This document shows, piece by piece, positions 30,125 through 58,549 of a stretch of 64,000 nucleotides of DNA. Under the pieces are notes generated by a model. That model made no database searches. It was not told the origin of the DNA and was given only the letters and a program-made list of their open reading frames with translations. Source of the stretch: Phyllobacterium sp. YR531 (GTDB lineage: Bacteria; Pseudomonadota; Alphaproteobacteria; Rhizobiales; Rhizobiaceae); contig NZ_AKIZ01000037.1 of NCBI RefSeq assembly GCF_000282595.1, positions 62,001 through 126,000 of the forward strand. Direction: 5' to 3'. The translations under genes and the position numbers were made by a program. Position 1 is the first letter of the stretch, and every line of letters begins with the position of its first letter.

Positions 30125-30209
30125 AATTAAAGGCATAAACCTTTAATTACAGGGGTTTGAAGGCCCATTTTACTGCAAACCAGCTATGCAAACTTGTGAC
30201 TCCAAGTTT
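30125..30209. promoter_or_regulatory. two inverted repeats upstream of the DUF1127 gene
   Basis: AATTAAAGG/CCTTTAATT (30125-30133 and 30140-30148, 6-base gap) and AAACTTG/CAAGTTT (30190-30196 and 30203-30209, 6-base gap) are both perfect. The first could end the preceding transcript or bind a regulator. The second lies just before CACTATATCC, a possible -10 region, and looks like an operator. Confidence 0.45.
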
Positions 30210-30282
30210 TGGGTGCACTGCACTATATCCAGCTCACCGATCGATAACGATCCAACAAACAAAAGAACTTTAGGTGAGTGAA

Positions 30283-30432
30283 ATGAACTTGATCCGCTCT
30301 TACAACAACTGGCGCCGCTATCGTGACACTGTCACGGAATTGAACCGCCTGTCCGCACGTGAGCTGAACGACCTCGGCATCTCCCGCGGTGATATCGCTT
30401 TCGTTGCGAAGAAGGCCGCTTCGGCATTCTGA
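30283..30432 (+). CDS. DUF1127 small basic protein
   Basis: A 49-residue protein, MNLIRSYNNWRRYRDTVTEL at the start and LSARELNDLGISRGDIAFVA in the middle, the diagnostic DUF1127 pattern (Arg-rich helix, then L-x-D-x-G-x-x-R). GGTGAG precedes the ATG by 6 bases. Members of this size act as small regulatory or RNA-turnover-linked proteins: CcaF1 in Rhodobacter is encoded upstream of the CcsR small RNAs. The same arrangement is seen here, as three CCUCC-loop hairpins follow the stop. Confidence 0.92.
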   Translation: MNLIRSYNNWRRYRDTVTELNRLSARELNDLGISRGDIAFVAKKAASAF

Positions 30433-30451
30433 TTTATACGGTCTCCCACGT

Positions 30452-30478
30452 CCGTGGCACTCCTCCTCCCAGCCACGG
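30452..30478 (+). ncRNA. cuckoo/CcsR-like RNA hairpin 1
   Basis: CCGTGGC (30452-30458) pairs with GCCACGG (30472-30478); the loop carries CTCCTCCTCCC, which contains the exact CUCCUCCC anti-Shine-Dalgarno motif of the cuckoo RNA family. It begins 20 bases after the DUF1127 stop. Confidence 0.75.
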
Positions 30479-30484
30479 CCGCAT

Positions 30485-30516
30485 AAAGAACAGCGTTCCT
30501 CCCAGAGCCGTTCTTT
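30485..30516 (+). ncRNA. cuckoo/CcsR-like RNA hairpin 2
   Basis: AAAGAAC (30485-30491) pairs with GTTCTTT (30510-30516); the loop holds TTCCTCCC, one base off the CUCCUCCC motif. The T-rich 3' strand makes it a possible terminator as well. Confidence 0.7.
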
Positions 30517-30522
30517 ACAAGT

Positions 30523-30560
30523 AACACCCATCGCTCCTCCCAGCGGTGGGTGTTCTTCTT
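30523..30560 (+). ncRNA. cuckoo/CcsR-like RNA hairpin 3 with terminator
   Basis: AACACCCATCGCT (30523-30535) pairs with AGCGGTGGGTGTT (30542-30554), 13 pairs with one T-G wobble; the CTCCTCCC motif runs from the end of the 5' arm into the loop, and CTTCTT follows. It is the most stable of the three and closes the array, probably ending the DUF1127 transcript. Confidence 0.75.
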
Positions 30561-30630
30561 TGTGCCTTTGCCTGATTGCACCTGCTGCCGTTTCCCCATA
30601 TCAAGCGAGCTCAGCAACGGAGGAAAGTTC

Positions 30631-57562: not shown

Positions 57563-58549
57563 TTAGCCGCCGAACATTTCCGAGAACTTGGCCTTGTCCG
57601 CATCGGTCGCTTCAAGAACTTTCAAGGTTTCGATTGGCATAACCTTTACCTGCACACCTTCGGGCAACCACGAAGGACGACCAATGGAAGGTTTGGCAGG
57701 GAGATAGCCCTGTTCAAGTGCCAGCTTCTGTCCATCATCGGAAAGGATGAAGTCGACAAACTTTTGTGCAGCAGGAAGGTTCTTGGAGCCTGCCATGATC
57801 GCGACGGGCTCAGTCACCGCAGGAACACCTTCAGACGGGAATACGAATTCAACTGGTGATCCCTTGGCTTTGGCATTCAGGGCCATGAAGTCAACCAGAA
57901 TGCCATAAGGCTTCTCACCGCTCGCAACAGATTTCAGCACAGCGCCATTGCCGCGTACCGCTACAGTCTCGTTAGCCTTCAGCTTGTCGAAATAGCCCCA
58001 GCCAAGTTCTGAATTGCCAACAAATCCACTGAGCAGATAAGCAGCTGCACCGGAATAAAGCGGGCTCGGCATGACGATCATGCCCTTATATTCAGGCTTG
58101 GCGAGATCCGCCCAATGTTCCGGCTTGGACGTTGCAGCCGAGTTATAAGCGATACCTGTCGTAATCAGCTTGCTGCCGAAATAAGTCTTTTGCGCATCGT
58201 AGGAATCCTTGTCGAATCCTTCGACATTCGCTTTCTCGTAGGACTGGAGCTTGCCCTGCTTTTTTAGACCTTCCATGCTCACGGCATCGGCGATCAGCAA
58301 CACATCGGCCTGCGTCGCGCCTGCCGAGAATTCGGCGGCCAGTTTGCCGAGGATGTCGCTTGTGCCGGAGCGATATACCTGTACTTCGATATCAGGATTG
58401 ACCTTGCGGAAGGCCTCGACAGTCTTTGCCGCATCCGCATCGGGTTGCGACGTATAAAGGCTCAATGTTTCAGCATTAGCCACACCAAAGGCGAGCGACA
58501 CAGCCAACAGAGCTGGCAAACCAATTGTCATTTTAAGAAGCTTGTTCAT
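57563..58549 (-). CDS. ABC importer substrate-binding protein
   Basis: A 328-residue periplasmic binding protein. The start MNKLLKMTIGLPALL opens a Sec signal cleaved near VANAE, and an excellent ribosome site (GGGAGGAG) precedes it. The mature part (LSLYTSQPDADAAKTVEAFRKVNPDIEVQVYRSG) is FbpA/AfuA-like. The YxxxYY tyrosine pattern that holds ferric iron in FbpA is not seen, so iron is doubtful; sugar-phosphate or phosphonate binders such as AfuA or PhnS share this fold. Confidence 0.88.
   Translation of the reverse strand: MNKLLKMTIGLPALLAVSLAFGVANAETLSLYTSQPDADAAKTVEAFRKVNPDIEVQVYRSGTSDILGKLAAEFSAGATQADVLLIADAVSMEGLKKQGKLQSYEKANVEGFDKDSYDAQKTYFGSKLITTGIAYNSAATSKPEHWADLAKPEYKGMIVMPSPLYSGAAAYLLSGFVGNSELGWGYFDKLKANETVAVRGNGAVLKSVASGEKPYGILVDFMALNAKAKGSPVEFVFPSEGVPAVTEPVAIMAGSKNLPAAQKFVDFILSDDGQKLALEQGYLPAKPSIGRPSWLPEGVQVKVMPIETLKVLEATDADKAKFSEMFGG

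What the first reader, a model, noticed from the sequence alone, without database searches (positions are those of the whole stretch)
30283..30560. DUF1127 gene followed by three CCUCC-loop hairpins: a cuckoo/CcsR small-RNA array
Seen: a 49-residue DUF1127 gene and, within 130 bases, three hairpins with loops CUCCUCCUCCC, UUCCUCCC and CUCCUCCC, matching the anti-Shine-Dalgarno motif. Known: in Rhodobacter, CcaF1 (DUF1127) is encoded upstream of CcsR1-4, which carry this motif, and cuckoo RNAs lie beside DUF1127 genes in other alphaproteobacteria. Three different stems with one shared loop suggest repeated duplication with free stem drift.
Basis: partly seen in the sequence, partly recalled or inferred. 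Interest (0 to 1): 0.72.

Follow-up and report, generated by a model that had tools for sequence, protein, structure and literature searches.

The report
DUF1127 gene with αr14 small-RNA array
A soil bacterium related to Phyllobacterium carries a tiny protein gene whose tail encodes a known type of small RNA, three hairpins that display a sequence like the ribosome's own docking sequence; it probably shuts off nutrient-uptake genes and is an ordinary member of a known family, with hints of a shared switch and of other host genes.

Summary
Window 30283-30432 encodes a 49-residue DUF1127 protein; nine bases on, 30442-30558 is a full-length match to Rfam RF02344 (αr14), 69.5 bits against a cut-off of 58.8. 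αr14 is the family of Sinorhizobium NfeR1. It is not CcsR1 by Rfam (17.2 of 65.3 bits). Two or more CCUCC-loop hairpins follow 76 of 80 DUF1127 relatives fetched, against 0 of 318 control stretches. Stems 1 and 2 covary; stem 3 is nearly frozen and looks like the terminator, so "free stem drift" is only partly right. Upstream lies a conserved site resembling the reported VtlR/LsrB box, at a fixed distance from the -10 in 72 of 81 loci; a LysR gene in the trxB-vtlR-AbcR order lies in the same genome. Best explanation: a VtlR/LsrB-activated DUF1127 mRNA whose 3' end is an anti-Shine-Dalgarno sRNA that silences mRNAs with GGGAGGAG ribosome-binding sites, often ABC transporters (6 of 12 predicted genes, 0 of 19 controls). 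New member of a known kind. Possibly new: the operator shared by DUF1127-hosted and stand-alone αr14, and αr14 copies in phasin 3' ends. Transcription, activation, processing and silencing are inferred; no expression data were available.

The parts
30176..30190 (+). candidate VtlR/LsrB (LysR-type) operator, CAAACCAGCTATGCA, 12 of 15 to the reported VtlR motif
   Evidence: best site in the 200 bases upstream, 12/15; 4 of 1620 mononucleotide-shuffled upstreams reach 12; same place (-107 to -109) in the window and 15 orthologues. Motif from PMC12595884 (passage). Three other 12/15 sites exist in the 64 kb.
30223..30228 (+). candidate -10 element CTATAT, no clear -35 (would fit an activator-dependent promoter)
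   Evidence: invariant in the 16-row alignment; 40 bases from the GCTATGCA core, a distance found in 59 of 81 loci and 0 of 4050 shuffles; the generic sigma-70 scan did not report it
30239..30252 (+). short inverted repeat GATC-N6-GATC in the presumed 5' leader
   Evidence: both GATC halves invariant in the 16-row upstream alignment; role not tested
30272..30278 (+). ribosome-binding site AGGTGAG of the DUF1127 gene, a poor partner for the array loops
   Evidence: invariant in the 16-row alignment; duplex energies -8.2 to -9.9 kcal/mol, like control sites
30283..30432 (+). DUF1127 small protein, 49 aa
   Evidence: PF06568, 59.3 bits
30442..30558 (+). αr14 sRNA (RF02344), three anti-Shine-Dalgarno hairpins
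   Evidence: 69.5 bits, model positions 1-123 of 123
30449..30481 (+). hairpin 1, loop ACUCCUCCUCCCA
   Evidence: 7 of 11 pairs with two-sided change
30484..30517 (+). hairpin 2, shortened motif UUCCUCCC
   Evidence: 4 of 9 pairs with two-sided change
30523..30562 (+). hairpin 3, loop CUCCUCCC, with U-rich tail: probable terminator
   Evidence: terminator-like, 13 pairs; stem nearly invariant

Best explanation
A LysR-type activator of the VtlR/LsrB kind switches on one transcript that encodes the DUF1127 protein and ends in an αr14 sRNA (three hairpins, the last one the terminator). The sRNA part is released or acts in place, probably after RNase E cleavage as reported for CcsR. Each loop (CCUCCC core) pairs in trans with GGGAGGAG-type ribosome-binding sites and blocks translation, often of ABC-transporter mRNAs. 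The DUF1127 mRNA has a different ribosome-binding site and should escape. Shown here: the gene, the RNA family, the conserved structure and loops, the conserved operator-like site at fixed spacing, and the complementarity to target sites. Inferred: activation, joint transcription, processing and silencing.
For: Rfam match. Arrays of two or more motif hairpins after 76 of 80 DUF1127 loci (stems of 6 bp or more), against 0 of 318 control stretches on either strand; 77 of 80 with stems of 5 bp or more. Covariation: 96.3% of cells paired, 11 of 36 pairs with two-sided change, 0 of 500 shuffles as many. Only 9 bases lie between the stop codon and the RNA match. Operator: 12 or more of 15 to the VtlR motif in 54 of 81 upstreams, 15/15 in L113. 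TGCA-N6-GCA lies exactly 58 bases from the -10 in 42 of 81, [GAT]CYATGCR exactly 40 bases in 59 of 81; 72 of 81 have one or the other, 0 of 4050 shuffles have either. A 298-aa LysR protein lies directly before an αr15/AbcR copy and after a frame end that matches thioredoxin reductase best (104.6 bits over the C-terminal part), the order reported for vtlR in PMC7486931 (passage). Targets: 6 of 12 genes of 100 aa or more with GGGAGGAG-N3-9-ATG are ABC-transporter parts, against 0 of 19 for AAAGGAGA; Fisher p 0.0013. NfeR1 silencing through such loops and its activation by LsrB were measured in S. meliloti (PMC10746234, passages).
Against: No transcript, cleavage or target data for this organism. 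The window's operator is a 12/15 match and lacks the TGCA-N6-GCA form; 9 of 81 loci show neither form at the fixed spacing. The spacing and operator patterns were written after seeing the alignments. The LysR gene's hits shown in NCBIfam are all below their cut-offs and none is VtlR-specific, so its identity rests on gene order. 3 of 80 loci show no array in the expected place (in two an αr14 lies nearby on the other strand). The target class was looked for knowing NfeR1's targets, so the p-value is not blind; the strong pairing energies of GGGAGGAG sites follow from the pattern chosen; a second permuted control (11 sites) was not classified by protein. The sigma-70 scan found no promoter between gene and array, but it also missed the candidate promoter upstream, so it does not exclude one. 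Loops 2 and 3 are shortened here and may bind less well.
Confidence: 0.75

Rival explanations
1. The hairpins are only a terminator and 3'-end stabiliser of the DUF1127 mRNA; the loop motif has no trans role.
For: Hairpin 3 is terminator-like and its stem is nearly frozen.
Against: Loops are kept while stems 1 and 2 change with compensation; three hairpins are not needed for termination; related αr14 RNAs stand without either host gene, 14 of 20 sampled Phyllobacterium ones with an operator-like site; NfeR1 loops silence targets (PMC10746234, passage).
Confidence: 0.1
2. The array acts in cis: loops pair with the DUF1127 gene's own ribosome-binding site and control its translation.
For: Gene and array lie 9 bases apart on one strand, so pairing on one transcript is conceivable.
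Against: The own start region pairs at -8.2 to -9.9 kcal/mol, like unrelated controls (means -8.8 to -9.7, n 27), against -16.6 to -26.8 for the 12 GGGAGGAG sites; AGGTGAG is invariant in the window and 15 orthologues.
Confidence: 0.04
3. The array chiefly binds the DUF1127 protein (CcaF1-like RNA binding), so that protein and RNA control each other.
For: CcaF1 binds RNA and aids CcsR maturation in Rhodobacter (PMC10253847, PMC8625941, passages); the neighbourhood is kept.
Against: Many αr14 copies have no DUF1127 gene directly before them: 42 of 85 sampled have neither host type and 12 a phasin gene; Agrobacterium DUF1127 proteins act on PhoR by protein contact and RNA binding by DUF1127 proteins is not general (PMC12501420, passages).
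Confidence: 0.08

Closest known systems
αr14 sRNA family (Rfam RF02344), founding member NfeR1 of Sinorhizobium meliloti
   Same: Three hairpins, CCUCCC-core loops, score above the curated cut-off
   Different: NfeR1 is described as a 123-nt Hfq-independent transcript from its own LsrB/NtrC-controlled promoter (PMC10746234, passages); this one begins 9 bases after a DUF1127 gene; loops 2 and 3 are shortened
Cuckoo RNA group / CIN1 locus (Reinkensmeier and Giegerich 2015)
   Same: 2-4 hairpins, variable stems, constant loop, beside DUF1127 (second-hand: PMC4504443 passage, PMC10253847 passage)
   Different: The paper itself is not held, so its matcher was not applied; stem 3 here is not variable
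ccaF1-CcsR1-4 operon of Rhodobacter sphaeroides
   Same: DUF1127 gene followed by sRNAs in its 3' end (PMC8625941, passage)
   Different: CcsR1 model gives 17.2 bits against 65.3; CcaF1 has 71 aa and an RpoHI/RpoHII promoter (PMC10253847, passages), here 49 aa and a VtlR/LsrB-like site
AbcR (αr15, RF02345)
   Same: Anti-Shine-Dalgarno motif and ABC-transporter targets by the literature (PMC10746234, passage); three copies in this genome
   Different: Another Rfam family; at L204 the gene before it is the LysR gene, not DUF1127

Membership tests
αr14 (Rfam RF02344) | score at or above the gathering score, full length | tested here: met
   69.5 against 58.8 bits, model 1-123
αr14 (Rfam RF02344) | three hairpins each with CCUCCUCCC unpaired (as described in PMC10746234) | tested here: inconclusive
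   three hairpins yes; full motif only in loop 1, loops 2 and 3 read UUCCUCCC and CUCCUCCC
αr14 (Rfam RF02344) | expressed as an RNA of about 120 nt | not testable with these tools
   no expression data
cuckoo group | 2-4 hairpins, no sequence conservation in helices, conserved loop motif (as quoted in PMC4504443) | tested here: inconclusive
   hairpins and loops met; helices 1 and 2 vary, helix 3 is conserved
CIN1 locus | short DUF1127 gene associated with CcsR-like sRNAs | tested here: met
   term from PMC10253847 passage
CcsR1 (Rfam RF02791) | score at or above 65.3 bits | tested here: not met
   17.2 bits, model positions 45-77 only
ccaF1-CcsR operon | RNase E processing of a joint transcript | not testable with these tools
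   needs RNA work
VtlR/LsrB regulon | VtlR/LsrB-type site upstream | tested here: inconclusive
   12/15 match at the place conserved in 16 of 16 aligned upstreams, fixed spacing to the -10; TGCA-N6-GCA absent in the window
VtlR/LsrB regulon | regulator binds and activates | not testable with these tools
   needs a binding assay and a deletion strain

The most novel reading that the evidence does not exclude
DUF1127 genes and their αr14 tails form one conserved operon, switched by VtlR/LsrB in Phyllobacterium, Brucella/Ochrobactrum species and relatives, so that effects credited to VtlR-controlled DUF1127 proteins are partly effects of the anti-Shine-Dalgarno RNA (classical Brucella was not examined here). 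The same RNA unit has also settled in another gene's 3' end (phasin), which would tie uptake control to carbon storage.
Probability: 0.45. Interest if true: 0.5.

Novelty: new member of a known kind. Interest (0 to 1): 0.3.

Why it matters
What DUF1127 proteins do is argued over: RNA binding in Rhodobacter, protein contact in Agrobacterium and Salmonella (PMC12501420, passages). If their genes regularly carry an anti-Shine-Dalgarno RNA in the 3' end, deletions that remove both mix two functions; stop-codon mutants against loop mutants would separate them. The shared operator would put AbcR, αr14 and DUF1127 under one regulator of nutrient uptake.

Tried and rejected
CcsR1 membership: rejected by score. 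flg-Rhizobiales on the reverse strand (24.1 against 55 bits): taken as chance, since the complement of the loops resembles its GGGA loops; no copy was found in this genome, but that search rang in no control genome either, so it does not show absence. A separate promoter for the array: none reported by the scan, which also missed the candidate promoter upstream, so this stays open. Cis pairing with the own ribosome-binding site: rejected on energy. The second permuted-site control (GAGGAGGG, 11 sites) was counted but its genes were not classified. Of 28 AAAGGAGA loci one was lost by my position filter (27 kept) and 8 shorter than 100 aa were left out; of 17 GGGAGGAG loci 5 shorter than 100 aa were left out of the comparison (two of these five, 52 and 60 aa, were scanned and matched no Pfam family); one HlyD membrane-fusion protein among the controls was not counted as an ABC part. 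The αr14 places are not all listed there, and I fetched 80 stretches of my own choice plus the 5 of the own genome; a few stretches hold two or three copies. My hairpin scan misses some hairpins that the alignment shows (for instance hairpin 2 of L045), so counts of two-hairpin arrays are too high. Papers: a search for phasin with anti-Shine-Dalgarno sRNA terms found none, a looser one nothing on this point among the 15 listed of 633. A search for VtlR/LsrB with NfeR1/cuckoo terms listed 8 papers; I saw passages of 5 of them and none of these passages joins VtlR-controlled DUF1127 genes to αr14; the other 3 I saw in the listing only. The cuckoo and CcaF1 papers are not held.

Full report
What is there. 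The window comes from a genome (G000, 5.0 Mb) whose nearest named loci are Phyllobacterium and unclassified Rhizobiales isolates. At 30283-30432 lies a 49-residue DUF1127 gene (59.3 bits to PF06568) between a low-affinity iron permease gene and a glyoxalase-family gene. Nine bases after its stop begins a full-length match to Rfam αr14 (30442-30558, 69.5 bits, cut-off 58.8). The region folds far better than its shuffles (z -6.9), and in my scan of the 64 kb no other two motif hairpins lie within 80 bases of each other.

Relatives. Within 400 bases after the gene, 77 of 80 carry at least two hairpins with the motif in the loop (39 with three, 17 with four, 16 with two, 4 with six, 1 with nine; 3 with none). 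With stems of at least 6 pairs it is 76 of 80, and 0 of 318 control stretches upstream in the same loci show two on either strand. Of 59 genomes searched, the own one included, 43 have αr14 at E 0.001 or better, 35 above the cut-off. The own genome has five copies: two behind DUF1127, one behind a phasin gene, two with neither. In 7 of 13 loci scanned (L072, L101, L102, L103, L108, L121, L123; picked mostly because they looked unusual) Rfam finds two or three full-length αr14 units in tandem (one of two in L123 and one of three in L108 score below the cut-off). So the three-hairpin block can be duplicated as a whole. The 17 loci with four hairpins show that single hairpins come and go as well.

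Structure. An alignment of the window with 15 orthologues (L044-L058 of the 80) keeps the three helices: 96.3% of cells paired, 11 of 36 pairs with two-sided change, 0 of 500 shuffles reaching that, and slid versions only 37.5-50.0% paired. Helix 1 has 7 such pairs, helix 2 has 4, helix 3 none; 9 of its 15 pairs never vary. The window and its nearest relative L044 have shortened versions of loops 2 and 3, and their Rfam scores (69.5 and 67.9) are lower than, for example, that of the Phyllobacterium sp. 628 orthologue (102.9 bits at the matching place of G012).

Switch. Upstream, the 16 aligned sequences share a block ending in CAGCTATGCA or its near variant, 40 bases before a CTATAT -10. It matches the VtlR motif CAATGCAGCCATGCA quoted in PMC12595884 (passage) at 12 of 15 in the window, 11 to 14 over these 16, and 15 of 15 in P. 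phragmitis L113; 4 of 1620 shuffled upstreams reach 12. Over 81 loci, 54 reach 12 or more. The core lies exactly 40 bases from the -10 in 59 of 81 and the LsrB form TGCA-N6-GCA exactly 58 bases from it in 42 of 81; 72 have one or both, 9 neither, and 0 of 4050 shuffles have either. These patterns were written after seeing the alignments. LsrB was shown to bind TGCA-N6-GCAT and to activate NfeR1 in S. meliloti (PMC10746234, passages). In sampled Phyllobacterium copies an operator-like core was present in 15 of 16 DUF1127-hosted, 14 of 20 unhosted and 0 of 9 phasin-hosted arrays (a loose pattern). A LysR gene stands directly before an αr15/AbcR copy and behind a frame end that matches thioredoxin reductase best, which fits the published trxB-vtlR-abcR order (PMC7486931, passage); no VtlR-specific model was among its hits shown.

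Targets. GGGAGGAG followed by ATG at 3-9 bases occurs 17 times in the genome, the pattern read backwards twice. Of 12 such genes with at least 100 codons, 6 are ABC-transporter parts (three ATPases, three solute-binding proteins); with AAAGGAGA it is 0 of 19, p 0.0013. One predicted target lies in this window (57563-58549, minus strand). The DUF1127 gene's own start region pairs no better than controls.

Mechanism and limits. The simplest reading is a joint transcript under a VtlR/LsrB-type activator, giving a small protein and an anti-Shine-Dalgarno RNA that lowers nutrient-uptake genes. Activation, joint transcription, RNase E processing and silencing are inferred from relatives. Whether the DUF1127 protein acts on this RNA is open: Rhodobacter CcaF1 does on CcsR (PMC8625941, passage), while other DUF1127 proteins act by protein contact (PMC12501420, passages).

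Against known kinds. By score it is αr14; by arrangement it is the CIN1/cuckoo locus; it is not CcsR1 by Rfam. The cuckoo and CcaF1 papers themselves are not held, so their criteria are second-hand. Nothing here is a new kind. Points that I did not find in print, within the searches, are the operator common to DUF1127-hosted and stand-alone αr14 and the phasin-hosted copies. In Brucella and Agrobacterium, VtlR control of small DUF1127 or hypothetical protein genes is already published (PMC12595884, PMC7486931, passages).

Noticed in passing
L005:1029-1619 and L128, L132, L136, L141, L142, L148, L155, L162, L171, L173, L186: An αr14 array follows a phasin gene (PF09361 in the 4 tested): 12 of 85 sampled αr14 places, one in each of 9 sampled Phyllobacterium genomes and one in each of 3 other genera; 0 of the 9 show an operator-like site of their own.
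   Followed up: partly
window 57563-58549 (-): A solute-binding protein gene (SBP_bac_6) has GGGAGGAG before its ATG and is a predicted target of the array.
   Followed up: partly
L084, L095 (JAHREI010000002.1 and JAHREI010000005.1): Contigs titled Bacillus subtilis SK6B4 carry DUF1127 proteins identical to those of Pseudochrobactrum loci: probably a mislabelled or mixed assembly.
   Followed up: no
L073 (WNDY01000077.1): A MAG titled Xylophilus has the same DUF1127 protein and the same 200 upstream bases as Brucella pseudogrignonensis L074: probably a mislabelled bin.
   Followed up: partly
window 30439-30554 (-): The reverse complement scores weakly to flg-Rhizobiales RNA (24.1 against 55 bits); taken as chance.
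   Followed up: partly
L112:2996-3110 (-), L116:3007-3120 (-): Two of the three DUF1127 loci without an array in place have an αr14 on the opposite strand beyond a tRNA gene.
   Followed up: no
L227:712-1503 (-), G000 contig C6: A 264-aa protein matches Pfam PF17841, the BID domain of Bartonella effector proteins; seen only as a control gene.
   Followed up: no
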